DNA of 64,000 nt from Planctomycetota bacterium (GTDB lineage: Bacteria > Planctomycetota > UBA1135 > GCA-002686595), in NCBI GenBank assembly GCA_023150475.1, contig JAKLKU010000007.1, forward strand, positions 246,110-310,109, in the 5' to 3' direction. Both the position numbers and the translations under genes were made by a program. The notes under the pieces are model-generated. The model was not told the origin of the DNA and ran no database searches. It was given only the letters and a program-made list of their open reading frames with translations. Shown piece by piece: positions 4,910 through 63,766 of this stretch (the first letter of the stretch is position 1; each line of letters starts with the position of its first letter).

Positions 4910-4940
4910 CGCGAGCCCGCGAAATCCTGGATTGGAGCTC

Positions 4941-4960
4941 TTGACAGCGCGTCATTGTCA
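4941..4960 (+). promoter_or_regulatory. Putative -35 (TTGACA) overlapped by inverted repeat TGACA-N9-TGTCA; candidate autoregulatory operator for the ArsR gene
   Basis: TTGACA at 4941-4946; TGACA 4942-4946 / TGTCA 4956-4960; local AT-rich stretch 18 bp upstream of the GTG start. Confidence 0.45.
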
Positions 4961-4977
4961 TTTCACTCTATAGCTAA

Positions 4978-6793: not shown

Positions 6794-6807
6794 AGGAGTC
6801 GCTGCAC

Positions 6808-7182: not shown

Positions 7183-7260
7183 ACCGAGCGCGGCGCGAAC
7201 ACGTCGCGCTCGGCGAGCCGTGTGGTGCCGCGAGCGCCGCGCGTTCCGCAGAGCGCGCGA

Positions 7261-8046
7261 TCAGCGCGCGCGGCCGAAGTCGTCCTCGAGCCGGACGATG
7301 TCGTCCTCGCCGAAGTACGTGCCGCTCTGGATCTCCACGAACGTGAGGATCTCGTCGCCGACGTTCTCGATGCGGTGCGCGGCGCCGATCGGGATGTCGA
7401 TCGTCTCGCCGCGGGAGAGCACGACGTCGCGGCCGTCCAGCGTGACCTTGGCCTCGCCGCGCACGACGATCCAGTGCTCCGCGCGCCGCGTGTGCTTCTG
7501 ATAGGAGAGGCGCTTCTTCGGCAGCACGTCGATGCGCTTCACCTTGAACGCCGGGTGGTCGGCGAGCACCCAGTACTCACCCCACGGCCGGCGATCGTGG
7601 ACTTGGTCGACGCGCCGTTTCGCTTCGCGCGCGAGGAGCTCGGTGTAGACCGCGCGGTACGCCGCGGCGGCGTGCGAGGACTGCGGCGCGACGGTCGCGG
7701 CGAGCGGCACGCGCGACGGACCTTCGTGGCTCGCGACGAACAGCGCGCGGGGCGCGAGCCGATCGGCGAGCTCGAACTCCTCCGCGCTCGGGTTCGGCGA
7801 GAGCGTCACGACGACCGGCGCCGTGGCGACGATCGCGAGCGGCAGGGCGCGCGGTTCGGCGAGCACGTGCACGAGGTCGAAGTCGCTCGCCCGGGCGAAC
7901 GCGTCGGCCATCGTGACGGACGCGCGCGCGTCGTCGCCGGCCTCGCTCAGGCGCACTTCGATGCCGCCGTGGCCGAGTTCGCGCACCAAGAGCCGTGCGA
8001 TGTCCGCGAACGGACCGCGCGCGGGAGCGACGAGGAGCAGTTTCAT
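7261..8046 (-). CDS. Phosphomannose isomerase type II-like cupin with N-terminal GT-B-like domain
   Basis: C-terminus RPWGEYWVLAD...VKRIDVLPKKRLSYQKHTRRAEHWIVVRGEAKVTLDG...GETIDIPIGAAHRIENVG matches mannose-6-P isomerase type II cupins; N-terminus resembles a GT-B Rossmann half. Confidence 0.8.
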   Translation of the reverse strand: MKLLLVAPARGPFADIARLLVRELGHGGIEVRLSEAGDDARASVTMADAFARASDFDLVHVLAEPRALPLAIVATAPVVVTLSPNPSAEEFELADRLAPRALFVASHEGPSRVPLAATVAPQSSHAAAAYRAVYTELLAREAKRRVDQVHDRRPWGEYWVLADHPAFKVKRIDVLPKKRLSYQKHTRRAEHWIVVRGEAKVTLDGRDVVLSRGETIDIPIGAAHRIENVGDEILTFVEIQSGTYFGEDDIVRLEDDFGRAR

Positions 8047-8121
8047 CGGTCGAAGGAGTCTAGGCGCGCCTCGCGACGCGGCAAGGCGCCTCTCTTCGGA
8101 CGGCGACGCCCTCGGACTCGA

Positions 8122-9321
8122 CTAGGTGCGGCGCAGCGCCGCGGTCGGCGTCATCCGGCAAGCGCGCAGCGCCGGCCAGAGCCCGCCGATCATGCCGAGC
8201 AACACCGAGAAGAAGATCGCCGCGCCGACCACCACCGGCGTCACGCGGAAGGCGAACGCCACTTCGGTGAACGTCTGGCCGTTCATCGTGCCGGTCTCGA
8301 TGCCGTTGATCGGCAAGACGAGCACGCAACCGACGAGTCCGCCCATCACGCAGAGCAGCAGCGTCTCCAGCATGAACGCGACGAAGATCGGCAACGGCCG
8401 GAAGCCCGTCGCGAGCAGGATGCCGATCTCGTTCGTGCGCGACGCGATCGCCGACAGCATCGTGTTGATCGCCGTGAACGCCGCGCCGACGCCCATGATC
8501 ACGGCGAGCGCCATGCCGAGGCCGAGCAGGATGCCGCCGAGCATCTGCGTCTGCGATTCGAGGAACGCACGCTCGGTCAGCACCTTCGCCGGCGCTTCGG
8601 TGTCGTTCGCGAGCCGCCCGGCGAGGCTCGCCGGATCCGGGCCGCCTTCCGCGTTGACGTCGCCGATCAGCGTGCCGGGCTTCACTTTGGCGATCACGCG
8701 GTTCGGGCCGTACGCGTCGAGGACGGCGAGCGCCCGCTCGAGGTCCGCCCAGATCTCGCTGACGAACGGTCCGTCGTGGTCGAACACGCCGACGACGCGG
8801 AACGGCGTCGTGTTGATCACCATCACGTCGCCGACATGGCAGTCCTGGATGCGCTCGACGAGCTTCTTGCCGACGATGATCTCGTCGGCGCCCGGCGTGA
8901 AATTCCGGCCTTCGATGATGCGCAACTCGTCGCCGCGGATCGTGAACGTCGCTTGCTGCACGCCGCGGAACGCGACGTTGACTTCGCCGCCGTCCGGACG
9001 TCTGCGCAGCACGCCGGAGTAGCTCTCCATCGACGCGAGCGGCCCGTGCTCGGGCGTTTGCTCGATCTCGGGCAGCGACTTCATCAGTTTCATGCCGCGT
9101 TCGCGCTGGAACTGACTGTCGGTCTCGCCGGTCGCGCCGGGCCGCAGGAAGACGATCACGTCCTCGCGGCCTTGCGACGTGAACATCGTCGTGAAGCCCT
9201 GCTGCAGCGCGAGCACGCCAGCGAAGATCGCCACGGTCACGCCGATGCCGAACACCGAGAGGAACGTCGCCGCCTTGCGGACGAAGAGGCTGCGCACCGT
9301 GTAGTTGAGCGGGATGAACAT
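8122..9321 (-). CDS. ABC transporter permease (FtsX/MacB type)
   Basis: N-terminal TM, periplasmic domain, C-terminal 3 TM block ending in PALRACRMTPTAALRRT. Confidence 0.88.
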   Translation of the reverse strand: MFIPLNYTVRSLFVRKAATFLSVFGIGVTVAIFAGVLALQQGFTTMFTSQGREDVIVFLRPGATGETDSQFQRERGMKLMKSLPEIEQTPEHGPLASMESYSGVLRRRPDGGEVNVAFRGVQQATFTIRGDELRIIEGRNFTPGADEIIVGKKLVERIQDCHVGDVMVINTTPFRVVGVFDHDGPFVSEIWADLERALAVLDAYGPNRVIAKVKPGTLIGDVNAEGGPDPASLAGRLANDTEAPAKVLTERAFLESQTQMLGGILLGLGMALAVIMGVGAAFTAINTMLSAIASRTNEIGILLATGFRPLPIFVAFMLETLLLCVMGGLVGCVLVLPINGIETGTMNGQTFTEVAFAFRVTPVVVGAAIFFSVLLGMIGGLWPALRACRMTPTAALRRT

Positions 9322-9324
9322 GGC

Positions 9325-10488
9325 TCAGTGCTCCGCGCGCAGCGCTTCGATCGGTTTCATGCGGCTTGCCCGCCAGGCCGGCACGATGCCGGCGGCGAGG
9401 CCGAGCAGGACGATCAACACCGCCGCGAAGATCAGCGTCTCGTCCGCGACGATGAACACGGGGAACATCGCGGCGATCGCCGCCGCGATGCCGGGTTTCA
9501 GCGCGAGCGTCAGTCCGATGCCGGCCGCTCCGCCGATCACGCAGAGCAAGAGCGATTGCGTGACGAGCACGCGGAACGCCGTGACGTCGTCGAAGCCGAG
9601 CGCCTTGTAGATGCCGATGTCCCGCACCTGTTCACGTCCGGCCATCAACATCGTGTTGACGCAGCCGAGCAAGAGCGCGACGAACACCGCGGTGCCGATC
9701 CAGCCGAGCAGCATCGGGATGTCGCCCATCATCGAGATGAACATGCGCTGGAACTCCGACTCCGGCGCACACCGCACCGACATCGGGCCGTTCTCGAACA
9801 TCGCGGTCACTTCGCCCATGATCCGTTCGACGTTCGCGCCGGGCTCGCAGCGGAAGACGAAGACTCCGACGCCGGGATCCTGGCCCGAAGTACGCAGAGT
9901 CTCCTCGAAGAACTTCCACTGGAACATCATCGTGCGTTCGTCGAAGTTCGCCGCCGACGACGTGTAGACGCCGCAGACTTCGAATTCCCACGCGCCGCCG
10001 TCGGGATGGGGGAAGAGCGCGCCGACCAACGGGATCTTGTCGCCGACCTTCCAAGCGAAGTTCGGGTCGTCCGCGAGCTTGCGGCCGATGATGCACCCGT
10101 TGCGCGTCGACAGGAAACGCTGCTTCGCTTCCTCGTCGAGCTGGCACTCCGGATACATGTCGAACAAGTGCTCGGGGTCGACCGCGAACTGCGCGAAGAA
10201 GTTCCTCGGGTTCTGGTAGTAGCCGCCGAACCACTGCCACTTGCCGATCACGTCGACGCCGTCGACTTGCTCGATGCGCTGCTGGTACGAGACCGGCATG
10301 TCGACGAACAAGCTGATCGAACTCATCACGATCAACCGCGTCGCGCTCGCCGCTTCGATGCCGGCGTCGAGCGTCGTGACGATCGAACGGAGGAGGCAGA
10401 GCAGCAGGATCGCGATGCAGACCGACGCGCTCGTGAGGATCGAGCGGATCGGGTGGGCGATCAGATTGCGCCAGGCGAGTTTGAGCAT
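9325..10488 (-). CDS. ABC transporter permease (FtsX/MacB type)
   Basis: LKLAWRNLIAHPIRSILT... and C-terminal PAWRASRMKPIEALR. Confidence 0.9.
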   Translation of the reverse strand: MLKLAWRNLIAHPIRSILTSASVCIAILLLCLLRSIVTTLDAGIEAASATRLIVMSSISLFVDMPVSYQQRIEQVDGVDVIGKWQWFGGYYQNPRNFFAQFAVDPEHLFDMYPECQLDEEAKQRFLSTRNGCIIGRKLADDPNFAWKVGDKIPLVGALFPHPDGGAWEFEVCGVYTSSAANFDERTMMFQWKFFEETLRTSGQDPGVGVFVFRCEPGANVERIMGEVTAMFENGPMSVRCAPESEFQRMFISMMGDIPMLLGWIGTAVFVALLLGCVNTMLMAGREQVRDIGIYKALGFDDVTAFRVLVTQSLLLCVIGGAAGIGLTLALKPGIAAAIAAMFPVFIVADETLIFAAVLIVLLGLAAGIVPAWRASRMKPIEALRAEH

Positions 10489-10495
10489 CGCCGCC

Positions 10496-11203
10496 TCACT
10501 TCGCCGCCGCGGGCGCGTTGTGTTCGATGCGGCCGAGTTCGCCCTTCTCGAGGTGGACGATCGATTGCGCGCGATCCGCCGCGTGCGGGTCGTGCGTGAC
10601 CATCAGGATCGTCTTCTTGAACTCCTGGTTGAGACGCACGAGCAGGTCGAGCACCTGCTCCGCCGACTTGCGGTCGAGGTCGCCGGTCGGTTCGTCCGCG
10701 AGCAGCACCTTCGGATCGGTGGCGAGCGCGCGCGCGATCGCGACACGCTGCTCCTGACCGCCCGAGAGCTGCTTCGGGCGGTGGTTCATGCGGTCCTTCA
10801 GCCCGACGAGCTCGAGCGCGTACTCGGCGTGTTTCTTGCGCTCCGCGCGCGAAAGGCCGGTCAACGAGAGCGGGAGCTCGACGTTCTCGCGCGCGCTCAG
10901 CACCGGGATCAAGTTGAAGCCCTGGAACACGAAGCCGACGTTGTCCGCGCGCCAACGCGCGAGCTCGGCGCCGTCGAGGTCCGAGAGATTGGCGCCTGCG
11001 ACGAACAGATCGCCGCTGTCGGGGTGATCGAGTCCTCCGACGAGGTTCAGCAGCGTCGTCTTGCCCGAACCCGAAGGCCCCATCAGCGCGTAGAAGCGCC
11101 CTTCGTCCATCTCGAGGTTCAGACCGTTCAAGACCTTCAGCGTCTCGCCGCCGCGCGAGTAGCTCTTGGTCACGTTCTTCACGCGGATCATCGCGTTCGT
11201 CAT
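10496..11203 (-). CDS. ABC transporter ATP-binding protein (LolD/MacB type)
   Basis: Walker [13 protein letters not shown], signature LSGGQEQRVAIARAL, Walker B VLLADEPTGDLD. Confidence 0.96.
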   Translation of the reverse strand: MTNAMIRVKNVTKSYSRGGETLKVLNGLNLEMDEGRFYALMGPSGSGKTTLLNLVGGLDHPDSGDLFVAGANLSDLDGAELARWRADNVGFVFQGFNLIPVLSARENVELPLSLTGLSRAERKKHAEYALELVGLKDRMNHRPKQLSGGQEQRVAIARALATDPKVLLADEPTGDLDRKSAEQVLDLLVRLNQEFKKTILMVTHDPHAADRAQSIVHLEKGELGRIEHNAPAAAK

Positions 11204-11279
11204 CGGTCACGCTCTCGTTGGGTTGACGTCGATTCGAGGGAGATACGTCCGTGTCGAGGCCCGCACGCGTCGCGTGACG

Positions 11280-12701
11280 TCACTGGCCTTCGACGAGGAC
11301 GCGCTGGCCATCCGCCAAGGTGTTCTTCGGTGCCGCGACGACGCGGTCCCCGTCGTTCAATCCGGTTTTCACGAGCACACGACCCGCGCGCTCGTCGCCG
11401 AGTTCGACCGCCGCGAAGCGCAACACGTCGCGTTCGAGCACGAACACCCCGCGTCGGCCGTCGATCGTGATCACGCTGTCCGCGGGGATGAGGATCGACT
11501 CGGGCGCGGGAGCGGTGTCGCTCTGCGGCGTCGCCTTGGGCGAGAAGACGACGCGCACGCCCATCTCGGGCCGCAGACGTTCGTCGGGCGCGACGAAGCC
11601 GATGCGGACTTCGACGGTCGCCTTCTGGCGGTTCGCCGTCGGCCAGATGCGTTGCACGACGCCTTCGTAGCGGTGGTCGGGATAGGCGTCGAGGTAGATC
11701 GCGGCGCTCGCGCCGACGACCGCGGATGAGAGGTTGGTCTCCGCGAGCTCGACTTGCGCTTCGAGCGACGCCCAATCGACCATCGTCGCCACCGATCCGC
11801 GTGAGTTGCCGCCTTGGGAGTTCGGACTGACGACTTCGCCGACTTCGGCGTCCTTCAGCACGACGATGCCGTCGAACGGCGCGCGCACCGCGGTCTTGTC
11901 GAACGTCGCTTTCGCTTGGTCGCGTTCGGCGGCGATCACCGGCAGACGAGCTTCGGCTTCGCGCACCGCGGCTTCCGACGCCGTGACCGCGGCTTCGCCT
12001 TGGAGCGAAGCGGCTTGGTTCGCGGCGAGCCCGGAACGAGCGGCGGCGACGGTCGCGTTCGCGCGCTCGAGCTCAGCGTTCGCGTCGTCGAGCTGTTGCA
12101 CGGTCCAGACCTTGTCGGCGACGAGCTTCGCGGCGCGCTCCGCCTTCACTTTCGCGAGCTTCTCGCCCGCGAGCGCTTCGGCGAGCAGCGCTTCCGCCTG
12201 CGCGACGTTCGCGGAGAGCCGCGCGAGGTCGGCGCGTTGGGCTTCGAGTCGCGTGCGCGCGCCGTCGACCAGGGCCTGCTGCGCGAGGAGGTCCGCTTCC
12301 GCGCGCCGCAACGCGGCCGCGTACTCGTCGGAGTAGAGCCGCGCGATCACTTGGCCTTCCTTCACGACCGAACCTTCGGCGACGTTCATCTCGACGATGC
12401 GGCCGGGCGTGTCGGCGGAGAGCGCTGCGCGGCGAGCGGCGACGATGTAACCGTTCGCGGCGGTGCCGGACACCGCGCTCGCGGCGAGCGGCGACGTCTT
12501 CTGCACGACGAACGAGCGCACGGACTCGAGCCGGAGGCGGTCGACGCGGCGCAGCAGCGGCTCGCGGAAGAGCCACACCAGCACGGCGACGACGACCACG
12601 AACAGCGTCCAGCCGATCGGGAAACGCGTCTTGCGGCCGCGCGGGGCCGAGCCGGAACGATCGATCTTCAGTCGGTGGAGGTCGGCGGCCTGTTCGCTCA
12701 T
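11280..12701 (-). CDS. HlyD/RND-type efflux periplasmic adaptor
   Basis: Single TM then lipoyl/coiled-coil/beta-barrel pattern (GRIVEMNVAEGSVVKEGQVIARL...TAVRAPFDGIVVLKDAEVGEVV); in operon with ABC genes. Confidence 0.9.
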   Translation of the reverse strand: MSEQAADLHRLKIDRSGSAPRGRKTRFPIGWTLFVVVVAVLVWLFREPLLRRVDRLRLESVRSFVVQKTSPLAASAVSGTAANGYIVAARRAALSADTPGRIVEMNVAEGSVVKEGQVIARLYSDEYAAALRRAEADLLAQQALVDGARTRLEAQRADLARLSANVAQAEALLAEALAGEKLAKVKAERAAKLVADKVWTVQQLDDANAELERANATVAAARSGLAANQAASLQGEAAVTASEAAVREAEARLPVIAAERDQAKATFDKTAVRAPFDGIVVLKDAEVGEVVSPNSQGGNSRGSVATMVDWASLEAQVELAETNLSSAVVGASAAIYLDAYPDHRYEGVVQRIWPTANRQKATVEVRIGFVAPDERLRPEMGVRVVFSPKATPQSDTAPAPESILIPADSVITIDGRRGVFVLERDVLRFAAVELGDERAGRVLVKTGLNDGDRVVAAPKNTLADGQRVLVEGQ

Positions 12702-37438: not shown

Positions 37439-37557
37439 CGAAAGCGCGGCAGTCTAGCGACGAACGAGCTTCGGCAAGGAGTGCGTCGCACCGAACGACT
37501 TCGCGGCTTTGCGGCTCCGCGCCTTCGCGGCGCTAGACTGTGCACGAACGAATCGTC

Positions 37558-39555
37558 ATGCCGCTCCACTCGTCGACGTGTCCGCTCGATTGCCCCGATG
37601 CGTGCGGTGTGCTCGTCGAAACCGACGAACGCGGTCGATTCGTGCGCCTCAAGGGCAACCCCGCGCACGGTTGGTCGCGCGGCGTGCTGTGCGCGAAGAC
37701 TGCACTCTACGGCGAAGTGATCACGAGCCCCGCGCGGCTCACGACGCCGCTCGTGCGCGACGCGGCGGGCGAGCTCGTGCCCGCGACGTGGGACGAAGCC
37801 GTCCGGCGCATCGCGACTCGCGTGCGCGGCGTGCCCGGCGAACGCATCCTCGCGGCGTGGTACGCGGGCAACATGGGGCTCGTCGCGAAGAAGTTCCCCT
37901 TGCGCGCGATGCACGCGCTCGGCGCGGCGATCGTCGACGGCGGCCTGTGCGACAACACGGCGACCGCCGGTTACGAGAACGTGCTCGGCGCCGTGATCGG
38001 ACCGGATCTCGATGACGTGCTCGACGCGGACCTCGTCGTGCTCTGGGGCTCCGACGTCGCGCGCACGGTGCAGCACCTGCAGCCCAAGCTGCAGAAGCTG
38101 GCGAAGGCCGGCGTGCCGATCGTCGCGATCGACGTGTATCGCACCGAGACGATCCAAGCGCTCGAGAAGTGGGGCGGCGAAGGCCTGATCATCCGACCGG
38201 GCAGCGACGCGGCGCTCGCGCTCGAGCTCGCGCGCCTCGCGTTCGAGCGCGGACGAGCCGATCGTGCCTTCCTCGAACGCGAATGCGTCGGCGCCGACGA
38301 GTTCGAAGCGCACGTCTTCGCGTCGACCGACCTCGAGCGTGCGGCGCGAGCGACCGGACTCGCTCCTGAGCGCATCGTCGAGCTCGCGCGGCTCTTCTTC
38401 GACGCGCGCCGGCCGCTCGTCAAGACCGGCGTCGGTTGGACGCGCCGGCGCCACGGCGGCATGTCGATGCGTGCGGTCTGTTCGCTCGCGGCGGTGCTCG
38501 GCATCGCGGAGCGCGTGCACTACGAGAGCTTCGCGACGTTCAGCCTCGCCGAGACCGCGCTCGAGAAGCCCGAGCTGCGTCCCGCCGGCTCGCCGCCGCG
38601 GAGCGTGCGACACGTCGCGCTCGGTGCAGCGCTCGAGAGCCGCGCGTACGACGTGCTCTTCGTCTGGGGCCACAATCCCGCCGTGACGTGCCCCGATGCG
38701 TCGCGCGTGCGCCGCGAGCTCGAGAAGGACGAGCTCTTCGTCGTCGTGCACGAGCAGTTCCTGACCGAAACCGCCGAACGCGCGGACGTCGTGTTGCCCG
38801 CGACGACCTTCGTCGAAGCGACCGACGTGTATCGCAGCTACGGCCATCGTTACCTGCAGTACTCGCGTCGCTCGTGCGCCGCGCCCGGCGAAGCGCGGAG
38901 CAACGTGCACGCGTTCGCGGCGATCGCGCGCGAACTCGGACTGCCGCGCGAGACGTGGGACGTCACGGAAGAAGGGCTCTGCGAGGAACTCTTCGCCGCG
39001 TCGCGCCACCGTCTGTCGCCCGAGCAAGTCGAACGCCTGCGCCGCGGCGAGCCGGTCAAGGTCACGCCGCCGTCGCGCGCCGACCTCGGTGGGTGGGGCA
39101 CGCCGAGCGGGAAGATCGAGCTCGCGAGCGACGCGGCGGTCCGGCTCGGCGAACCGCGCTGCGCGACGTACGTCGAGGATCGCACCGAGCGCGAGCACGG
39201 CGCGTTCTGGCTCGTCGCCGCGCCGTCGCGCTACACGCACAATTCGACCTACAGCCACAGTCCGCGCCACGTCGCGCTCAATGGGCCGCCGAAGGTGTTC
39301 GTGAATCCCGAGGACGCGGCGGCGCGCGGGCTCGCCGACGGCGCGCGGGTGCGGTTGCACAACCGTCGTGGCGCGCTGACGTTGACGGTCGCGATCACGA
39401 CCGACATGCCGCGAGGGCTCGTGCGCGTCGACGGGCTGCCGCGCGCGGCCGACGTGCCGGAGAAGGTCGGCATCAACGCGCTCGTCGCGCCCGACGTTTC
39501 CGATCTCGGCGACGGCAACGTGCTCTACAGCACGCGGGTCGATCTCGGCGCCTGA
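37558..39555 (+). CDS. Molybdopterin-dependent oxidoreductase (Mo-bisMGD, 4Fe-4S)
   Basis: STCPLDCPDACGVLVET...LKGNPAHGWSRGVLCAK; WGHNPAVTCPDA; C-terminal RVRLHNRRGALTLTVAIT. Confidence 0.95.
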   Translation: MPLHSSTCPLDCPDACGVLVETDERGRFVRLKGNPAHGWSRGVLCAKTALYGEVITSPARLTTPLVRDAAGELVPATWDEAVRRIATRVRGVPGERILAAWYAGNMGLVAKKFPLRAMHALGAAIVDGGLCDNTATAGYENVLGAVIGPDLDDVLDADLVVLWGSDVARTVQHLQPKLQKLAKAGVPIVAIDVYRTETIQALEKWGGEGLIIRPGSDAALALELARLAFERGRADRAFLERECVGADEFEAHVFASTDLERAARATGLAPERIVELARLFFDARRPLVKTGVGWTRRRHGGMSMRAVCSLAAVLGIAERVHYESFATFSLAETALEKPELRPAGSPPRSVRHVALGAALESRAYDVLFVWGHNPAVTCPDASRVRRELEKDELFVVVHEQFLTETAERADVVLPATTFVEATDVYRSYGHRYLQYSRRSCAAPGEARSNVHAFAAIARELGLPRETWDVTEEGLCEELFAASRHRLSPEQVERLRRGEPVKVTPPSRADLGGWGTPSGKIELASDAAVRLGEPRCATYVEDRTEREHGAFWLVAAPSRYTHNSTYSHSPRHVALNGPPKVFVNPEDAAARGLADGARVRLHNRRGALTLTVAITTDMPRGLVRVDGLPRAADVPEKVGINALVAPDVSDLGDGNVLYSTRVDLGA

Positions 39556-39697
39556 GTGCGCGCTCCGGCGCTCGTCCGCCTGCAGTGGCCGCGCAGATCG
39601 GACCCGGGCTTCGCCGAGCGCTCGATCCGGTGCTCCTCGACGCGTGCCCGTCGTCGTCGAAGTGGTCTCCGCTCTTGTCGCCGACTACCGTACGCGC

Positions 39698-40549
39698 ATG
39701 GATCTCGGACTTCGTGACGCCGTCGTCTTGATCACCGGCGCGTCGGGCGGCATCGGCCGCGCGCTCGCCGACGAATTCGCCGCGGAAGACGCGCGGCTCG
39801 TGCTCACCGGGCGCACGCGTTTCGACGAGCTCGTCGCGCTCGTCGCAACGAAGCCTTGGAAGGACCGCGCGGTGTGCGTGCGCGCCGACGCGGCGCAACC
39901 CGCCGAGATCGAGGCCGCGTTCTCCGCCGGAGTCGAGCGTTTCGGTCGGGTCGACGTCGCCGTCGCCAACGCCGGGTTCTGGCCGCGCGAGAACCTGCTC
40001 TTGCACCAAGCGAGCGAAGCACGCATCCGCGGCGCTCTCGACGCGAACTTGTTCAGCGCGGTGTTCACGGCGCGGGCGTTCATGGCAACGCTCGCGCGCA
40101 CCGGCCCGCGCGAGGACGGACGCGGCGCGTCGCTGTGCCTCGTCGGTTCGACGGCCGGGCGTTTCGGCGAGCGGCACCACTGCGAGTACGCGGTCGCGAA
40201 GGCGGGGCTCCACGGGTTGCTCGTGACGCTGAAGAACGAGATCGTGCTCGTCGACCGCTATGCGCGCGTCAACATGGTCGAACCCGGTTGGACGGTGACG
40301 CACATGGTGCGGCCGGAGCTCGAGACGCCCGGCGTGATCGCTCGGGTGACGCGCACGATGCCGCTGCGCCAACTCGCGCGCGCCGTCGACATCGCCCGTT
40401 CGATCGTGCTGCTCTCGTCGCCGACCGCGTCCCGCCACACGACGGGCCAGACCCTGACGCTCGCGGGCGGCATGGAAGGCCGCGCGCTGTGGGAAGCCGC
40501 CGACGTGGACGAATCGGCGGTGCGCGCGCGGCTCGTCGATCCTCGCTAG
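39698..40549 (+). CDS. SDR-family oxidoreductase
   Basis: LITGASGGIGRALADEFA (TGxxxGIG), VANAG, S...Y/K active-site region (GSTAGRFGERHHCEYAVAKAG). Confidence 0.93.
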   Translation: MDLGLRDAVVLITGASGGIGRALADEFAAEDARLVLTGRTRFDELVALVATKPWKDRAVCVRADAAQPAEIEAAFSAGVERFGRVDVAVANAGFWPRENLLLHQASEARIRGALDANLFSAVFTARAFMATLARTGPREDGRGASLCLVGSTAGRFGERHHCEYAVAKAGLHGLLVTLKNEIVLVDRYARVNMVEPGWTVTHMVRPELETPGVIARVTRTMPLRQLARAVDIARSIVLLSSPTASRHTTGQTLTLAGGMEGRALWEAADVDESAVRARLVDPR

Positions 40550-40832
40550 CGAACAGTGAACGGGCCAAGCGACGAAGGAAGCGCTTGAATTCCGTGTGTT
40601 GAGTTCGTCTTGAGCTCATGGGTCTTTCGTCGAAATCGCGAAATGCCGCCAGAGCATTCGTCATCCGCGTCCTCACTCGGGCGACGCAAGCTCATCACTG
40701 GATCAACGCGCCGTCGTCACGTGTGCATCACGAAGACCAGCCGTGCGTTGCGAACTCATCCATTCTCGAGCAATCCAGAGATTGCAGGACGAATCTCAAT
40801 TCGCGCGTTCGTCGATGGCCGCGTCGGTTGTG

Positions 40833-41336
40833 CTACCGATAGTAGTGGCTGCGAACACTCGCCTGCCACTTCTGGAACACTGCTGCCAAGGCCTTCTTCG
40901 CTGAGGCTGACATGGTCGGATCCGGCATTCGGTGTATGAACACGTCAGTAACGCCGGGGTCGAATACCCCGCCCGTGATTCCATCCTCGGCGAACACGAG
41001 GAGCGGTAATTGGAGGCCAAACAGAATCCCAGCTTCAAGCTGGTTCCATGGAGTTGGGAAGGGAACCGCACGCGTCACCGGCTTTTCCGACGGGGTTCCG
41101 CGCTTTGCGATCCCGGTCTGCAATTGGATCTGCTCGAAGCCGAGGATCACACCCCCGGAGCAGTGCTTCGCCAGGAGGAAGACCTCTCGAAGGGGTAGAT
41201 CCGTCGGGTAATCGGACCGGCCGAGCGCACGGGGCTCGAGGTTCGCACGGTCGAGTTCGCGCAGAATCATCTTTCGCGAAGCGTCCTGTGCAGCGTTCAG
41301 ACTTGTGGGACAAGACACGAACACAGGGATCTTCAC
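40833..41336 (-). CDS. Small TIR/NDT-like Rossmannoid protein (conserved hypothetical)
   Basis: GTG start with GAAGGAA upstream; KIPVFVSCPTSLN...CSGGVILGFEQ...FPTPWNQLEAGILFGLQLPLLVFAEDGITGGVFD; W-x2-L-E arrangement recalls TIR/NDT folds; lower GC. Confidence 0.7.
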   Translation of the reverse strand: MKIPVFVSCPTSLNAAQDASRKMILRELDRANLEPRALGRSDYPTDLPLREVFLLAKHCSGGVILGFEQIQLQTGIAKRGTPSEKPVTRAVPFPTPWNQLEAGILFGLQLPLLVFAEDGITGGVFDPGVTDVFIHRMPDPTMSASAKKALAAVFQKWQASVRSHYYR

Positions 41337-41344
41337 ATTGGTTC

Positions 41345-41649
41345 CTTCAAGAGTTTGAAGCGGGCGGAGATCCGCGTTGCAGTGCGAACGATCGACGCTC
41401 CGCCTCACGGAAGAGTATGCGCTGGCCGTCCACATGCCAAGTGGGAACTACGTGGTACGGGCGGACCGCGGGGAGCGCGCCGTCGGACGGGGCGCGAGGT
41501 CACTGGAGCCGAACGGACATGCCGGTGACGAACGCCTCGCGCGACGAACTGCCTTCAAGCACTTCTTCGTCGCTGCAGTTCAGGTCGAATGACTCGACTC
41601 GCGCGTCGTCCAGCTTCGCCGAGGCCCAATCGCCCGGGTTTGGCATCGG
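41345..41649 (-). pseudogene. Possible interrupted small ORF upstream of the TIR-like gene (one in-frame TGA at 41500-41502)
   Basis: MPNPGDWASAKLDDARVESFDLNCSDEEVLEGSSSREAFVTGMSVRLQ*PRAPSDGALPAVRPYHVVPTWHVDGQRILFREAERRSFALQRGSPPASNS*, ending just before the 41336 GTG start. Confidence 0.3.
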
Positions 41650-41705
41650 CACGCGTTCGAGCCCCGACCGCGTGCTCGTATGGGCACTCCCCGCCCCCGA
41701 CCTTG

Positions 41706-42830
41706 TCAGGCCTCCAGCCGAGCGCCGCACGCGATTGCGTACGCGCTCCAGGTCGCGCGACTGCAGCGGAGCCAGGTCCACTCGGCGGCGTGGGTGCGGC
41801 CGCGCGCGGCGAGAGCGCGGGCGAACTCGGGGTCCGACAGCACCGACTTCGCCGCCGCATGCAGCGCGTCGACGTCTTCCGGGTCGGGCAGGAGTGCGCC
41901 GTCGCCGCACACTTCGGGCAGCGTCGTCGCCGAGCTCGCGATCGTCGGGGCGCCGAGCAGCATCGCCTCGAGCGGCGGCAGGCCGAAGCCTTCCGACAGG
42001 CTCGCGAAGAAGAAGAGCTCGCACTGCGCCATCAGCCGCGCGAGCTCCGCGTCGTCGACGAACTCGCGCACCTCGATCCGTTCTCTCGCCGGCGAAGCCT
42101 CGACCGCGCGCAAGAACGCCTCCGTGCGCCAGCCATGCGGGCCGACGACGAGCCAACGGTGCGGGAACCCGTCGCGCACGAGCCTCTCGAACGCCGCGAG
42201 CATGCGCAGGTGGTTCTTGCGCGGGTCGATGCGGCTCGCGGTCAGCACGAAACGTCCACTTGCCGGCGCGAAGCCTTCCGGCGGAACGTGGCGCAGCACG
42301 TGATCGCAGCCGAGCGGCGTGACCGCGATGCGCTCGCGCGCGACACCGAACGCACGCTCGACTTCACGCGCGACGAACTGCGTCGGCACGAAGAGCAGCG
42401 ACGAACGTTCGACGAGCGCACGCGCGGCGCGGCTCATGCGCTCCGCGGTCTCCGGCTCGACGAAACGCCCGTCGCGTTCGAGGTAGATCGTGTCGAAGAT
42501 CGTCGCGACTTCGCGCGCGCGGCGCACCGGGAGCACGTTCGGCTGCGTGTGGTGCCACACGTCGACGCCGCCGAGCGAGTCGTCGGCGCCGCGACCGCTC
42601 GCACGCAGCAACGTCGGCAGGAGTTTCGCGGGCAAACGCCGCCGCACGAGCCTCGCGCGGCCGTAGCCGAGCTCGTCGGTCGAGAAGCGGCTCTGCGCGA
42701 GCGTCGAACCGAACAACGCGACGTCTCGATCGTGCCCGAGCTCGACGAACGAACGCACGAGTTCGCGCGCGTAACGCCCGATGCCCTCGCGATTCTGCAG
42801 TCCGGGCCGGAAGTCGAGGCCGACGCGCAT
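41706..42830 (-). CDS. GT4-family glycosyltransferase
   Basis: MRVGLDFRPGLQNREGIGRYARELV...TASRIDPRKNHLRMLAAFERL...FASLSEGFGLPPLEAMLLGAPTIAS. Confidence 0.93.
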   Translation of the reverse strand: MRVGLDFRPGLQNREGIGRYARELVRSFVELGHDRDVALFGSTLAQSRFSTDELGYGRARLVRRRLPAKLLPTLLRASGRGADDSLGGVDVWHHTQPNVLPVRRAREVATIFDTIYLERDGRFVEPETAERMSRAARALVERSSLLFVPTQFVAREVERAFGVARERIAVTPLGCDHVLRHVPPEGFAPASGRFVLTASRIDPRKNHLRMLAAFERLVRDGFPHRWLVVGPHGWRTEAFLRAVEASPARERIEVREFVDDAELARLMAQCELFFFASLSEGFGLPPLEAMLLGAPTIASSATTLPEVCGDGALLPDPEDVDALHAAAKSVLSDPEFARALAARGRTHAAEWTWLRCSRATWSAYAIACGARLEA

Positions 42831-42894
42831 GGGCCGAGGATTCTACGGACGCGCGGCGCGCGCCGTCTTGTGCCGAGCGACGACGCCGCGTGAA

Positions 42895-45747
42895 ATGCGA
42901 GGTGGGATGGGTGAGGAGGGAGCCGCAACGCCGGGGATCGACGAGCTCGTGATCCGCGCGCTCGATGCGCTGGAGCGCGGCGCGCACGACGAAGTCGAGG
43001 CGCTGTGCACGGCGCATCCCGAGCACGCGTCGACGTTGCGGCGACGCATCGCGTTGCTCGGTGGGCTCGGCGTGCTCGGTGGGCTCGGCGTGCTCGGTGC
43101 GCCGGCGAAGCCGGTCGCGAGCGACGGCCACGAACGGCTCGGCGAGTTCGAGCTCCTCGAGCAGCTCGGCGCCGGCGGCATGGGCGTCGTCTACCGCGCG
43201 CGCCAAGAGAGGCTGCAGCGCGACGTCGCGCTCAAGATCGTGCGGCCGGAGTTCCTCTACTTCCCCGAGACGCGCGAGCGATTTCGCCGCGAAGTCGAGA
43301 CCGTCGCGCGTTTGCAGCACCCGGGCATCGTGCCGGTCTATTCGGTCGGTGAAGAACGCGGCGTGCCGTTCTTCACGATGGAGTTCGTGTCCGGTGCGTC
43401 GCTCGAGAAGGTCCTCGCGCGCGTGCGCGGCCGCGAGCCCGCGAAGTTGACGGGCGCCGATCTCGCGCCTGCGCCGGAACGTTCGGGTTGGCTCTTCGCC
43501 GGTTCGTGGGAGGATGCGTGCCTGCGGATCGTGCGGCAAGTCGCGGAGGCGCTCGAGCACGCGCACGAACGTGGCGTGATCCACCGCGACTTGAAGCCGT
43601 CGAACGTGATGTTGTCCGCCGGCGCGGCGAGCCGCGTGCTCCTGCTCGACTTCGGTCTCTCGAGCCTCGCCGGTTCCGGCAAGTTGACGCGCACCGGCGC
43701 GCAACTCGGCACGCTCGACTACATGTCGCCGGAGCAAGTGCGCGGCGACGCTGCGGCGATCGGGCCGGCGTCGGACGTCTATTCGCTCGGCGCGACGCTG
43801 TACGAGCTCCTGACGCTCGCAAAACCGTTCGAAGCGACTTCGCTGTCCGCTGCAGCCGTCGCGATCGAGCGCGGCGAGCTCGTCGCGCCGCGTGCGCGGA
43901 ATCCCGCGCTGTCGTGGGAGGCCGAGACGATCGTGCTGACCGCGATGGATCGTGATCCTTCCCGGCGTTATCCGTCCGCCGCCGCGTTCGCACGAGATCT
44001 CGAGAACGCGCTCGCGAAACGACCGCTCGACGCGAAGCGCATGTCGCCGTGGCTCGTGGTGCGGCGTTGGATCGAGCGCAATCCGATGCGCGCGATCGCG
44101 GCCGGACTGCTCGCGCTGGTCGCGCTCGGCGGTCCGTCGCTCTGGGCGTGGCAACAGCAGCGCGCGGCCCGCGAGGTCGCCGCGGAACGCGACGTCGCGC
44201 AAGCGAACCTCGATCGCGCGCTCGCCGCCGTCGACGCGATGCTCGTCGAAGTCGCGTCCGAGCGTCTGCAGGACGTGCCGCAAGTGCAGACCGTGCGCCG
44301 CGCGCTGCTCGAACGTGCGCGCAGCTTCTACGACGAGTTCCTGGCCGTTTCAGGCGACGATCCGCGGATCGCACGCGGGCAAGGCGACGTGCATCGCAAG
44401 CTCGCGGGCGTGTTGCACGGCCTGGGCGAATTCGAACGCGCCGCGGCCGTCGCGCGCACCGCGGTCGAATTCGGTGAACGCGAGCTCGCCGCCGCAGTGG
44501 GCGCCGAAAGGGTGGAGGGCGACGTCGTGGCCGCCGACCGCGCGCGCATCGCGATCGCCGAAGCGCGCAGCGTGCACTCGAAAGCGCTGTGGAAGCTCGG
44601 GTTGCCCGATGACGCGGAACGCGAGGTCCGCGCGGCGCTGGACGAGCTCGATCGTCTGGTCGCGCGCGGCGTCGGCGGCGACGAACTCCGGCTGACGGCG
44701 GTCGACACGCGTTGCGATTTCGCGTTCGTGTTGCGCACGCTCGATCGACGCGACGACGCGGCGCGGGAGATCTCGCGCGCCGAGCAGGACGGCCTCGCGT
44801 TGATGGCGGCACACGCGACGGACCCGCGTTTCGCGACGACCGTCGCGGAAGTGCTGCGCGAGCGAGCGTTCCTGGCCGTGTTCGCCCGAGACCACGAAGC
44901 GGCGCGTGAGCTCCACGAACGTGAAGTCGCCCTGCTCGAGCCGGTGCGCGCCGCGCATCCCGACGACACGGACGTCGAGCATTCGCTCGCGATCGCCGTC
45001 GCGAACCTCGGGCGCGCGACGCTCGATCTCGGCGACGCGCGCACGGCTCTCCCGGTGCTCGAGCGCGCCGTCACGTTGCTCTCGAACTTCGTCGTCGCGT
45101 ATCCGCTCGACACGACCGCTCGTGCGACGCTCGCCGGCTGCATGATCAACCTGGGCATCGTCGAAGGCGCAAGCGGAGACGTCCGCGCGACCCTCGCTCG
45201 GTTCCAGGCGGCGCGCGAGCAACTCGCGCGTGCGGCGAGCGACCGGCCCGACAATTTCGACCCGCTGATCCAACTCGCGCAGCTCGAGTTCAACGTCGCG
45301 ATGGCGCACGCGCGGCTCGGCGAACTCGACCGCACCGCCGAGACGCTCGACGCGGCCTACGCGACGATCGGCACGGTGCGCCGCGCGTTCCCGGCGAACG
45401 TCGAGTACGCCGGCATCGAGCGCAGCATCGTGCAACGTTCCGTGCAGGCCGCGGTCGCATTGGAGCGCGGCGCGCAGGCGATCGAGTACGCCGGCCGTTT
45501 CGTCCCGAGCGACGATCCCGCGTCGCTCTTCGAGCACGCGCGCTTGTACGCGTCGTGCGTACCGCTCGCCGCGCCAAGCGAGGACTCCGTGCGCGCCGCG
45601 TTGCTCGACAGGACGTTCGCCGCACTCGACCGCGCGCTCGCCGCCGGCTTCGCGGACGCAGACGCGCTCGCGACGCCGACGTGGGAGCCGCTGTCCGCGG
45701 ACGCGCGCCTCACCGCGGCGCGCGAACGGCTCGGTGCCCGGAAGTAG
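42895..45747 (+). CDS. Receptor-type Ser/Thr protein kinase (kinase-TM-TPR)
   Basis: LGAGGMGVVYRARQERLQRDVALKIV, HRDLKPSNVML, DFGLSS, MSPEQVRGD; TM AIAAGLLALVALGGPSLWAW; C-terminal helical repeats. Confidence 0.94.
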   Translation: MRGGMGEEGAATPGIDELVIRALDALERGAHDEVEALCTAHPEHASTLRRRIALLGGLGVLGGLGVLGAPAKPVASDGHERLGEFELLEQLGAGGMGVVYRARQERLQRDVALKIVRPEFLYFPETRERFRREVETVARLQHPGIVPVYSVGEERGVPFFTMEFVSGASLEKVLARVRGREPAKLTGADLAPAPERSGWLFAGSWEDACLRIVRQVAEALEHAHERGVIHRDLKPSNVMLSAGAASRVLLLDFGLSSLAGSGKLTRTGAQLGTLDYMSPEQVRGDAAAIGPASDVYSLGATLYELLTLAKPFEATSLSAAAVAIERGELVAPRARNPALSWEAETIVLTAMDRDPSRRYPSAAAFARDLENALAKRPLDAKRMSPWLVVRRWIERNPMRAIAAGLLALVALGGPSLWAWQQQRAAREVAAERDVAQANLDRALAAVDAMLVEVASERLQDVPQVQTVRRALLERARSFYDEFLAVSGDDPRIARGQGDVHRKLAGVLHGLGEFERAAAVARTAVEFGERELAAAVGAERVEGDVVAADRARIAIAEARSVHSKALWKLGLPDDAEREVRAALDELDRLVARGVGGDELRLTAVDTRCDFAFVLRTLDRRDDAAREISRAEQDGLALMAAHATDPRFATTVAEVLRERAFLAVFARDHEAARELHEREVALLEPVRAAHPDDTDVEHSLAIAVANLGRATLDLGDARTALPVLERAVTLLSNFVVAYPLDTTARATLAGCMINLGIVEGASGDVRATLARFQAAREQLARAASDRPDNFDPLIQLAQLEFNVAMAHARLGELDRTAETLDAAYATIGTVRRAFPANVEYAGIERSIVQRSVQAAVALERGAQAIEYAGRFVPSDDPASLFEHARLYASCVPLAAPSEDSVRAALLDRTFAALDRALAAGFADADALATPTWEPLSADARLTAARERLGARK
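43060..43095 (+). repeat. 18-bp tandem duplication (GGTGGGCTCGGCGTGCTC x2) encoding GGLGVLGGLGVL
   Basis: Direct reading. Confidence 0.85.
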
Positions 45748-45812
45748 CCACGCCGAATCTGTGCGGAGCTGGCGATCCGCGATAGTGTCTTGCGCTTCGC
45801 ACGGAGGGAGAC

Positions 45813-47471
45813 GTGCTGTTCGTCAGCTTTCAAGATCGTGGTCACGACAAGGAGAATGCGCGCGCCTTCGCCGAAGGGCTGCGCGCGCTCGGCATCGACG
45901 TTTGGTGCTCGGCGATTCCAGGCACCATTCCGAAAGGGCAAACGAGCAATGCGGCTGTCGTTCGTGCGCTCGAGCGGTCAACTTGCTTCGTGTTGGTGAC
46001 GTCGGGGTCGATCGACTCGAACTGGGTCCTCGGCGAAATCGATACTGCACTCGAACGGGCGGACGAAGATGCCACGTACTCGATCGTGCCTGTGCTGCTA
46101 CCCGGCGCTCGGTCGCGCGACTTGCCGGTGGCGCTGCGGACGCTCGAGCGTCTAACCACCAGCGTCGAGCCGCGACGCGCGAACGCGGAAGCGTTTCGCG
46201 AGTGGGCGCGGAGTCTCGGCTTCCCGGTCGTCGAACCGCCACGTGACGCCCCTGCCAACGCGCGAACGCAGCCGGCACACGCAACGCCACCGGCGGGCGC
46301 AACGCGGGAGCCCGTGGTCGACGCACCTCTCGAAGCACACGAGCGCACGGCGGCGACGAGAGACTCCGACAACCAACGGCGAATGGAGCCCGAGCCGTTC
46401 TTCGTGCGGCCGGGGGCACTGCTGTCGCTGCTCGCCGTGACGCTCGTGCTCACGGGCGGGTACTACATGTTCCGGCGTTTCGATGTCGTCGGTCCACTCG
46501 AACGACCCAAGCTTGGAACCGACGGTTCAGGTGTCGCCGCCGCGGCGTCGCCGCGTACATGGCCCGCGGTGCGCGAGAGGCTGACGCTCGACCCGCGTTT
46601 CGTGGGCGTCGAGTTGCCCGATCAAGTCGGCCTGCTTCCGCTCGGTCAGAACGGCCGTACGAGGCTCGAGGAGTTCGCAGTCGAAGGCACGGGTGCCGTG
46701 CCCAGCGAAGCGACTCGCGACGCCGAAGGAGTGCTGCCGATCACGGACGAGGACGCGATCGTGCTCGTGCTCGTCCCGCCCGGCTCATTCCAGATGGGCT
46801 CGCCGCCAGGAGTCAGAAACGGCGATGGACGTCCCCAACATCTGGTCACGTTCTCCCAGCCGTTCTTCATCGCGCGCACCGAACTCACGAACGCTCAACT
46901 GCGAGCCGTGCCTGTCGGGCGGAATTCGAGCGACGCACGGCTCCCGGCGGCCGGTGTTTCGTGGCACGACTTCGTAGGTCATGGTTCCACATTCGGCTTG
47001 CGGTTGCCGACCGAGTCCGAGTGGGAGTATGCGTGTCGAGCAGGGACGACGACGGAGTACAGCTTCGGCAATGATGCTGCGGGGCTCGCGACGCACGGTT
47101 GGTACTTCATCAACTCGGGGACGCAACCGCTGGACGAGCAGACCGAGTGGAAGTTTGGGAACCTGGACGAGTGGGGGTGCCGAGCCCATCCAGTCGGAGA
47201 TGCGACGAAGTTGGCAAATCCGTGGGGCTTGCACGACATGCACGGGAACGTGTGGGAGTGGTGCGCGGACAGCTGGCACTGGAACTATGAAGGGGCGCCG
47301 AATGACGGCAGTCAGCGGTTGGATCAGGAGTCTCCAGATCGCGTGGTGCGCGGCGGGGCGTTCGATACTCCCGCCGGACACCTGCGGTCGGCGTCCCGGC
47401 GCAGATCTAACGCGGCGGAGCCATCGCGCAGTGTCGGAGCGCGCTACGCCCGGTCTGTCGCCACGAATTGA
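45813..47471 (+). CDS. TIR domain - TM - formylglycine-generating-enzyme-like (FGE/C-lectin fold) receptor-like protein
   Basis: GTG start with GGAGGGAG RBS; LFVSFQDRGHDKENARAFAEGLRALGIDVW...CFVLVTSGSIDSNWVLGEIDTAL (TIR); TM ALLSLLAVTLVLTGGYYMF; PPGSFQMGSPPG...ISWHDF-like, LPTESEWEYACRAGTTTEYSFGND, NPWGLHDMHGNVWEWCADSW, RVVRGGAFD (FGE-sulfatase). Confidence 0.9.
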   Translation: MLFVSFQDRGHDKENARAFAEGLRALGIDVWCSAIPGTIPKGQTSNAAVVRALERSTCFVLVTSGSIDSNWVLGEIDTALERADEDATYSIVPVLLPGARSRDLPVALRTLERLTTSVEPRRANAEAFREWARSLGFPVVEPPRDAPANARTQPAHATPPAGATREPVVDAPLEAHERTAATRDSDNQRRMEPEPFFVRPGALLSLLAVTLVLTGGYYMFRRFDVVGPLERPKLGTDGSGVAAAASPRTWPAVRERLTLDPRFVGVELPDQVGLLPLGQNGRTRLEEFAVEGTGAVPSEATRDAEGVLPITDEDAIVLVLVPPGSFQMGSPPGVRNGDGRPQHLVTFSQPFFIARTELTNAQLRAVPVGRNSSDARLPAAGVSWHDFVGHGSTFGLRLPTESEWEYACRAGTTTEYSFGNDAAGLATHGWYFINSGTQPLDEQTEWKFGNLDEWGCRAHPVGDATKLANPWGLHDMHGNVWEWCADSWHWNYEGAPNDGSQRLDQESPDRVVRGGAFDTPAGHLRSASRRRSNAAEPSRSVGARYARSVATN

Positions 47472-47654
47472 CTTCACCACATTACTCGGAGTGCGTCCGT
47501 GCGGGCTGTGGGCCGGATGGAGTGTGTTGACGAAGGAGACGCGTGCAGTGGTGCCTTGGTCATGCGCACGACTGCGACGACGGTGGCGTCCAGTGTGACG
47601 AGCGAAGCGAGGCCACCAAGGACGGAAGGTCATCGGTGCCCTGCGTCAAGCGGC

Positions 47655-49004
47655 TCAGGCGAGGGCGTGCAGCGCCGACGAGAGCGCGGCTGCCAGCGCG
47701 AAGCCCAGTGGGCCGCCGAGCCAGAGCCACGCGCGACGATCGAGGAAGCGCACGCCGTTCGCGTGGAGCACGAGGGCGCTGCCGAGCGTCACCAGCGACT
47801 CGGTCAGGAAGGTCGTGCAGCCCGCGCCCGTGATGCCGAAGCGCGGCACGGCGACGAAGTTCGCCAAGACGTTGAAGGCGAGCGCGACGCCGGCGATCGC
47901 GAAGCGTCCGCGGTTCGCGCCCGACGCGACGACGCACGTGACGAAGAACGAGCCGGCGTAGATCGCGACCACGGCGCCGAGCAGCCAACGGAAGCTCGCG
48001 CTCGCCGCGCCGGTGCCGTCGTGGAAGAGCTCGAGCAGCTCGTAGGTCCACGGCCAGAGCAGTCCTGCGCACGCGCCGGCCGCCGCGAACACCTTGGGTC
48101 CGAGCCCGGCGATCGCTGCGCCGAGCCGTCCTTCCGCGTGGCAGCGCGCGAGCCACGGCAACGCCGCGAGCGACGTGTACTGCGCGATCATGATCAAGAG
48201 CGAGAGGAACCGAACGGCGACGTTGTAGTGCCCGAGCTCCGCTTCGCCGACGTAGACGCGCACGAAGACGTTGTCGATCCAGAAGTAGAGCTGCGAGCAC
48301 AACGCGGCGAGCCCGAGCGGCAGCGCGGCGCGGAAGAACTGCGGCGACGGCTCGACGCTTTCGGGCTTCGGCGGCAGCGCGCGGCGCGACGCGAAGTAGA
48401 GGAGCACGTTGGCGATCGTGCTGCCCGCCGCGACGCCGAGCACGTAGAGCGCGGGCTCGCGCACCTCGGCGAACCGCAGGCCGATCACGAACGTCAGGCT
48501 GAGCGCGCTCGCCGTCGAACGCATCAACACCGGCACGCGCCACGAGATGCGGTTCTTGAAGACCACCGAGCCGAGCTCGAGCGCGTGCGTCACGGGGTAG
48601 AACGACGCGACGAGGATCCACACGGCGCCCGGCTCGCGTTCGAGGAACGCCCAGCCGCCGACGAGGACCACGCCGACGAGTCCGGAGAGCACGCGCACGC
48701 GCCGGCCCGACGCCAACACCGCGTGAATCGCCGCGGGGTCGTTCGCGGTGCGCTGCACGGCGACTTGTCCCGACCCGAGGTCGGCGAAGGAATCGAGCCA
48801 CGCGAAGACGGCGAGATAGAACGTGAACCGACCGAACGCGTCGGGCGCGAGCCAGTTCGCGAGCAACGCGAGCGTCGCGAGCGTGCAACTCGCGCTGAAG
48901 ACTCGGCCGAGCACCTGCAACGCCGTGCCGCGCCACACGCGGCGCGGCGGCGAGGCGGACCCGGAGTCTTCGGCGGGCGTAGGCGCGATCACGCGGCACG
49001 CCAT
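47655..49004 (-). CDS. Polysaccharide flippase (Wzx/MATE-like)
   Basis: ~12-14 hydrophobic segments; LAPDAFGRFTFYLAVFAWLDSFADLGSGQVAVQR; YVGEAELGHYNVAVRFLSLL. Confidence 0.88.
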   Translation of the reverse strand: MACRVIAPTPAEDSGSASPPRRVWRGTALQVLGRVFSASCTLATLALLANWLAPDAFGRFTFYLAVFAWLDSFADLGSGQVAVQRTANDPAAIHAVLASGRRVRVLSGLVGVVLVGGWAFLEREPGAVWILVASFYPVTHALELGSVVFKNRISWRVPVLMRSTASALSLTFVIGLRFAEVREPALYVLGVAAGSTIANVLLYFASRRALPPKPESVEPSPQFFRAALPLGLAALCSQLYFWIDNVFVRVYVGEAELGHYNVAVRFLSLLIMIAQYTSLAALPWLARCHAEGRLGAAIAGLGPKVFAAAGACAGLLWPWTYELLELFHDGTGAASASFRWLLGAVVAIYAGSFFVTCVVASGANRGRFAIAGVALAFNVLANFVAVPRFGITGAGCTTFLTESLVTLGSALVLHANGVRFLDRRAWLWLGGPLGFALAAALSSALHALA

Positions 49005-63415: not shown

Positions 63416-63484
63416 TGACCCGCCCCCGTCAAACGCTCCCAGTCGGAATGTTAGGACTTGGGAACCCACGACGAGGAGACAGGC

Positions 63485-63766
63485 ATGGGCCGGAAGAAGA
63501 AGCACAGCGACGAAGAGATCATCCGCAAGCTGCGTGAGGCGGAGGTGGCGCTAGCGCAGGGGCGGACGACGAAGGACGTGTGCCGGCAGCTCGAGGTGAC
63601 GGAGCAGACCTACTACCGCTGGCGCAAGGAGTTCGGCGGCCTGAAGGTCGACCAAGCGAAGCGGCTGCGGGACCTCGAGCGCGAAAACGGCCGGCTGAAG
63701 AAGATGGTCGCAGAGCAAGCGCTCGACATCGCGATCCTGAAGGAAGCCGCGTCGGGAAACTATTGA
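63485..63766 (+). CDS. IS3-family transposase OrfA
   Basis: MGRKKKHSDEEIIRKLREAEVALAQGRTTKDVCRQLEVTEQTYYRWRKEFGGLKVDQAKRLRDLERENGRLKKMVAEQALDIAILKEAASGN. Confidence 0.97.
   Translation: MGRKKKHSDEEIIRKLREAEVALAQGRTTKDVCRQLEVTEQTYYRWRKEFGGLKVDQAKRLRDLERENGRLKKMVAEQALDIAILKEAASGNY

What the first reader, a model, noticed from the sequence alone, without database searches (positions are those of the whole stretch)
42895..47471. Adjacent pair of one-TM signalling receptors: kinase-TM-TPR followed by TIR-TM-FGE
The two co-oriented genes (about 65 bp apart) share the same topology: N-terminal cytosolic signalling domain, single TM, C-terminal extracytoplasmic repeat/lectin-like domain. Kinase, TIR and FGE modules recur in bacterial conflict systems with multidomain sensors, so this may be a two-component envelope-sensing or defence unit set inside a glycan locus.
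Basis: inference. Interest (0 to 1): 0.72.

Follow-up and report, generated by a model that had tools for sequence, protein, structure and literature searches.

The report
Membrane TIR sensor beside receptor kinase
A planctomycete carries, side by side in a sugar-polymer gene cluster, an ordinary receptor kinase and a recently acquired membrane protein that joins an immune-type TIR enzyme domain to a lectin-like sensor; the second is a membrane-anchored variant of known bacterial defence-type proteins, but nothing shows that the two genes work as a pair.

Summary
Gene 1 is a catalytically intact kinase-TM-(weak)TPR protein. Gene 2 is TIR-TM-FGE-fold, with the TIR catalytic glutamate kept and both FGE active-site cysteines lost.

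In other genera of the family a GT4 gene and a flippase gene are neighbours; here the two genes sit between them as a 4.8 kb insertion. Three congeners lack both genes there.

The 'unit' idea fails the half of its own test that could be run. The kinase has host-like codon usage (z -0.6), the TIR gene foreign usage (z -6.0). TIR-FGE proteins of a related genus have no kinase neighbour, no kinase ortholog was found, and the adjacency was seen nowhere else.

The TIR-FGE protein fits published TIR/STAND-FGS conflict proteins: an inactive lectin-like FGE sensor with a TIR effector. Its special feature is a membrane helix, giving a one-pass, TLR-like layout; four related TIR-FGE proteins lack it. 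A second foreign gene nearby belongs to an undescribed family found beside ThsB-type TIR genes. No reverse transcriptase was found, so diversification is unlikely.

Verdict: new variant of a known kind; moderate interest.

The parts
42895..45747 (+). P0001, Hanks-type Ser/Thr kinase, one TM, TPR-like C-terminal region (950 aa; the ATG at 42907 is an equally good start)
43147..43974 (+). protein kinase domain (residues 85-360), catalytic motifs intact
44092..44148 (+). single hydrophobic TM segment of the kinase (residues 400-418)
44155..45744 (+). C-terminal helical-repeat region, TPR-like (best Pfam hit just under cut-off)
45803..45807 (+). GGAGG ribosome-binding site 5 bases before the GTG start of the TIR-FGE gene
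   Evidence: sequence
45813..47471 (+). P0002, TIR-TM-link-FGE protein (552 aa), foreign codon usage
45819..46160 (+). TIR domain (residues 3-116); E75 of the W-V-L-G-E motif aligns with a Glu of flax L6 TIR and of metazoan TIR-STING
46398..46478 (+). TM helix (residues 196-222)
46533..46742 (+). conserved pre-FGE 'link' segment (residues 241-310), shared with kinase-FGE and other TIR-FGE proteins
46764..47453 (+). FGE/C-type-lectin-fold domain (residues 318-547) lacking both FGE active-site cysteines
41706..42830 (-). GT4 glycosyltransferase, conserved in 76 of 81 family genomes; left border of the inserted pair
47655..49004 (-). polysaccharide flippase (Polysacc_synt); right border; adjacent to GT4 in other genera and to the SDR gene in three congeners
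40836..41336 (-). second foreign insert: 167-aa protein of an undescribed family with an invariant W...E, found beside ThsB_TIR genes elsewhere

Best explanation
The notable element is the TIR-TM-FGE protein, not the pair. It is most likely a membrane-anchored sensor-effector of the TIR/FGS conflict class. Shown from sequence: an FGE/C-type-lectin-fold domain without the enzyme's cysteines, one TM helix, a TIR domain that keeps the catalytic glutamate, foreign codon usage, and insertion in a glycan locus. Inferred: the FGE fold faces outside the cytoplasm and binds a ligand (an invader's or an envelope glycan/protein); binding clusters the cytosolic TIR domains; they then cleave or cyclise NAD+, stopping the infected or damaged cell or making a signal. 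The kinase next to it is an independent receptor kinase of the large planctomycete STK-TPR family. It may be co-transcribed and might even phosphorylate its neighbour, but no result shows that they form one system.
For: TIR_2 and FGE over Pfam cut-offs. E75 is invariant in the four TIR-FGE proteins aligned and aligns with a Glu of L6 and TIR-STING. The position of the second FGE cysteine is C in 19 of 22 relatives but L524 here, and no cysteine follows residue 484. The model gives a confident CLec/FGE domain, best PDB match PvdO, then FGEs and the DGR variable protein TvpA. Related TIR-link-FGE (G007, G104) and TIR-nSTAND1-link-FGE (G296) exist, the last in a cluster with a macro protein and another TIR-FGE. 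Published analyses describe FGS domains as invader sensors fused to TIR, kinase and STAND modules (PMC8195603, PMC10907252). The FGE domain of P0002 falls outside the kinase-FGE clade (support 99/96). Codon usage z: TIR-FGE -6.0, kinase -0.6. The pair splits the conserved flippase-GT4 neighbours and is absent from three congeners.
Against: No activity or phage phenotype is known. The TIR part of the model is low-confidence. The positive-inside rule does not settle the orientation of P0002: positive charges just after the helix (RR, R, K) are not fewer than before it. Four related TIR-FGE proteins have no TM, so the FGE module can also work in the cytoplasm. PADLOC gives only weak hits to TIR models. 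The two genes lie together in a single inserted interval, which leaves some room for joint acquisition.
Confidence: 0.6

Rival explanations
1. One reading: kinase-TM-TPR and TIR-TM-FGE form one two-gene envelope-sensing or defence unit, the kinase phosphorylating the linker of the TIR protein.
For: Same strand, 65 bp apart, no terminator-like site between; both in one inserted interval between GT4 and flippase; the linker (about residues 135-196) is disordered in the model and holds several Ser/Thr. A kinase as immediate neighbour has roughly a 1-2% chance for a random gene, given about 42 kinases in a 5.9 Mb genome (estimate).
Against: Not conserved anywhere sampled; different codon-usage histories; the genome holds about ten FGE genes, so one kinase neighbour among them is not very surprising.
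Confidence: 0.17
2. The TIR-FGE protein is a signalling or scaffold receptor for the host's own envelope or capsule glycan, its TIR acting as a protein-interaction module rather than an NADase.
For: It sits between a GT4 and a flippase; the FGE fold is lectin-like, and kinase-TM-FGE proteins, presumably housekeeping receptors, are abundant in the phylum.
Against: The gene is foreign in codon usage and private to this species within the genus sampled; the catalytic Glu is kept; relatives with the same TIR-link-FGE layout are not in this glycan locus.
Confidence: 0.18
3. A chance assembly: the TIR-FGE gene landed beside a kinase and has no current role.
For: Single occurrence, foreign codon usage.
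Against: Intact 552-aa frame with ribosome-binding site, catalytic Glu and FGE core motifs conserved.
Confidence: 0.05

Closest known systems
STAND NTPase-FGS and TIR/EAD-FGS conflict proteins (Kaur et al. 2021, PMC8195603)
   Same: TIR effector at the N-terminus, FGE/FGS lectin-like sensor at the C-terminus; a TIR-nSTAND1-FGE relative with the same link segment exists in the phylum
   Different: No NTPase between; a TM helix instead, so the sensor is probably outside the cytoplasm; no EAD adaptor seen
DGR-diversified CLec antigen sensors (Dore et al. 2024, PMC10907252)
   Same: CLec/FGE-fold sensor with TIR, kinase or STAND modules; some are predicted periplasmic
   Different: No reverse transcriptase found in the genome (91% complete), so no sign of targeted diversification
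Planctomycete kinase-TM-FGE receptors
   Same: Same order of TM, link and FGE; 37 of 38 have a TM between kinase and FGE
   Different: TIR in place of kinase; the FGE domain is from another branch of the tree
Toll-like receptors
   Same: One-pass layout with cytosolic TIR and extracytoplasmic sensor (inferred)
   Different: Opposite domain order, lectin-like FGE fold instead of leucine-rich repeats, no evidence of common descent of the whole receptor
Thoeris (ThsB TIR)
   Same: TIR fold; the nearby second insert belongs to a family found beside ThsB_TIR genes
   Different: No ThsA seen; weak profile match only

Membership tests
TIR/STAND-FGS conflict proteins | N-terminal effector (TIR) fused to C-terminal FGS/FGE domain | tested here: met
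TIR/STAND-FGS conflict proteins | central STAND/NACHT-type NTPase | tested here: not met
   no NTPase hit in P0002; a relative in G296 has nSTAND1
TIR/STAND-FGS conflict proteins | patchy, horizontally moved distribution | tested here: met
   foreign codon usage and absence in congeners
DGR variable protein | reverse transcriptase with template/variable repeats | tested here: not met
   no RVT_1 hit in own genome, 91% complete
Formylglycine-generating enzyme | two copper-binding active-site cysteines | tested here: not met
   no cysteine after residue 484; L524 where 19 of 22 relatives have C
NAD-cleaving TIR domain | conserved catalytic glutamate | tested here: met
   E75 aligned with L6 and TIR-STING
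NAD-cleaving TIR domain | NADase or cyclase activity | not testable with these tools
   needs biochemistry
Hanks-type receptor kinase | intact catalytic motifs plus one TM | tested here: met
Two-gene kinase/TIR-FGE unit | the two genes conserved as neighbours | tested here: not met
Two-gene kinase/TIR-FGE unit | co-transcription | not testable with these tools
   65 bp gap, no terminator-like site
Thoeris | ThsA partner gene next to a ThsB TIR | tested here: not met
   no SIR2/SLOG or other ThsA-like domain in the neighbouring genes scanned

The most novel reading that the evidence does not exclude
A bacterial, one-pass, Toll-like receptor: an extracytoplasmic lectin-like (inactive FGE-fold) sensor that fires a cytosolic NAD-cleaving TIR across the membrane, tuned by phosphorylation from the adjacent receptor kinase, so that invaders are sensed at the envelope before genome entry.
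Probability: 0.12. Interest if true: 0.8.

Novelty: new variant of a known kind. Interest (0 to 1): 0.42.

Why it matters
FGS/FGE lectin-like domains have been proposed as invader sensors in bacterial conflict systems, and according to PMC10907252 CLec sensors attached to STAND proteins have not been characterised experimentally. A compact TIR-TM-FGE protein without an NTPase or reverse transcriptase is a simple case in which that proposal could be tested, and it raises the question whether bacteria run TIR responses from an outward-facing sensor as animals do.

Tried and rejected
DGR reading: no RVT_1 match in the genome. Active FGE: cysteines absent. Kinase swapped for TIR in a kinase-FGE ancestor: the FGE tree puts P0002 outside the kinase-FGE clade. 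A single four-gene 7.1 kb island, suggested at first by three congeners: rejected, because GT4 is a family-wide gene whose neighbour is the flippase, so there are two separate inserts. Structure of the 40836-41336 protein: pLDDT 44, uninformative. Homologs of that protein in viral contigs: none; its degenerate alignment could not be scanned. Direct or inverted repeats, tRNA or terminators marking the insert borders: none convincing. A literature search for 'TIR domain' with 'FGE-sulfatase' returned nothing. TIR-FGE fusions on plasmids: only FGE-part matches.

Full report
What is there. The window comes from a 5.94 Mb draft genome of a planctomycete (own contig C77), 91% complete. Gene 2 (45813-47471, +) encodes 552 residues: TIR_2, a disordered linker, one TM helix, a conserved 'link' segment and an FGE-sulfatase domain. 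The gap is 65 bp, with a good ribosome-binding site before the GTG of gene 2 and no terminator-like site.

What the domains can do. The TIR domain keeps the glutamate that is catalytic in NAD-cleaving TIRs (E75; aligned to L6 and TIR-STING; invariant in the four TIR-FGE proteins aligned; that this Glu is catalytic is established knowledge of the TIR family). The FGE-fold domain is modelled with high confidence; its best PDB match is PvdO, followed by true FGEs and the Treponema variable protein TvpA. It has lost both cysteines that make FGE an enzyme, so it is most likely a binding domain. The kinase is an active-type kinase, one of about 42 in this genome.

Where it sits. In three congeners an SDR gene is followed directly by the convergent flippase gene. 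At first this suggests a 7.1 kb island in our genome. The wider family corrects that: GT4 is present in 76 of 81 genomes and lies beside the flippase in seven of the nine non-congeneric neighbourhoods read (G067, G069, G104, G007, G014, G081, G004; positions), in five of them with the SDR gene or the molybdopterin-type oxidoreductase gene of window 37540-39555 close by. The window keeps the SDR-GT4-flippase order, so GT4 is ancestral here and the congeners lost it from the site. The pair fills the space between GT4 and flippase; a separate insert (40836-41336) lies between SDR and GT4.

Is the pair a unit? The evidence says probably not. Codon usage relative to 21 window genes gives z = -0.6 for the kinase and 0.1 for GT4, but -6.0 for TIR-FGE and -8.8 for the small insert: kinase and TIR-FGE probably arrived at different times or from different donors. 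TIR-link-FGE proteins of G007 and G104 have no kinase next to them. The TPR half of the kinase finds no ortholog in 81 family genomes (best full-length match 28%). Kinase and TIR genes co-occur in 0 of 66 FGE loci, 0 of 29 STK-TPR loci and 2 of 33 TIR loci.

What the TIR-FGE protein is. The link-FGE module is shared by many planctomycete kinase-TM-FGE proteins, by TIR-FGE proteins and by a TIR-nSTAND1-FGE protein in G296 that lies in a cluster with a macro-domain protein, a radical-SAM-like protein (by eye) and a second TIR-FGE protein. A tree of the FGE domains groups most kinase-FGE proteins with 99/96 support and leaves P0002 and the other TIR-FGE proteins outside; their order is unresolved. 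Kaur et al. 2021 (PMC8195603) describe FGS domains as invader sensors coupled to TIR, kinase and STAND modules, and Dore et al. 2024 (PMC10907252) describe CLec antigen sensors, some predicted periplasmic. P0002 fits this class by its ends but has a TM helix where the class has an NTPase; the four TIR-FGE relatives tested have no TM, whereas 37 of 38 kinase-FGE proteins do. It is a membrane-anchored variant.

How it most likely works. Shown: domains, catalytic Glu, loss of FGE cysteines, TM helix, foreign codon usage. Inferred: the FGE domain outside, ligand binding, TIR clustering and NAD+ cleavage. The charge pattern around the helix does not settle orientation, and TM-free relatives show that the module can also work inside the cell.

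A second hint of conflict genes. The small insert 40836-41336 belongs to a family without Pfam, NCBIfam or PADLOC hits, found in 6 of 294 phylum genomes and, at 58-67% identity, in a Magnetospira and a Methanothrix MAG. In G123 it follows a ThsB_TIR gene and a SLATT-like DUF4231 gene; in G144 it precedes a ThsB_TIR gene and a caspase gene. Its invariant W...E and alternating strand/helix pattern suggest, but do not show, a TIR-like fold.

Limits. Genomes are drafts; in the phylum search with the TIR-FGE alignment only three candidates per genome were scored, so TIR-FGE counts are lower bounds; neighbour checks used mostly 1.5 kb flanks; TM calls are hydropathy-based; the claim of foreign origin rests on codon usage and synteny.

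Noticed in passing
window 40836-41336 (-): 167-aa protein of an undescribed, widely transferred family (bacteria and archaea) that occurs next to ThsB_TIR, SLATT-like and caspase genes in other planctomycetes; foreign codon usage (z -8.8).
   Followed up: partly
L140 (G296 C44), 4534-12103: Cluster with TIR-nSTAND1-FGE, a TIR-like/macro protein, a radical-SAM-like protein and a second TIR-FGE protein; looks like a conflict island.
   Followed up: partly
L172, 46-2983: In a Magnetospira MAG the homolog of the 40836-41336 gene lies between urease gamma- and alpha-like genes (by eye), where urease beta would be expected.
   Followed up: no
L180, 1114-7179: A viral contig (IMG/VR) carries eight FGE-fold domains in tandem over 6 kb.
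   Followed up: no
L043: A kinase-FGE protein without TM lies on the strand opposite a GAF-cyclase-TIR protein in another genus of the family.
   Followed up: no
window 43055-43107: 18-bp tandem repeat (3 copies) in the kinase gene encoding a GGLGVL repeat near the N-terminus; reads as hydrophobic but is Gly-rich.
   Followed up: no
G001-G003 against window 39644-49004: The congeners have lost the family-wide GT4 from the flippase locus and carry only a 46-48% identical GT4 elsewhere.
   Followed up: partly
window 63458-63766: Short ORF resembling an IS3-type transposase subunit near the window's end (by eye, not searched).
   Followed up: no
phage record NC_008562.1, 41775-42416: Microcystis phage LMM01 gene annotated 'kinase' matches the FGE domain of P0002.
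   Followed up: no
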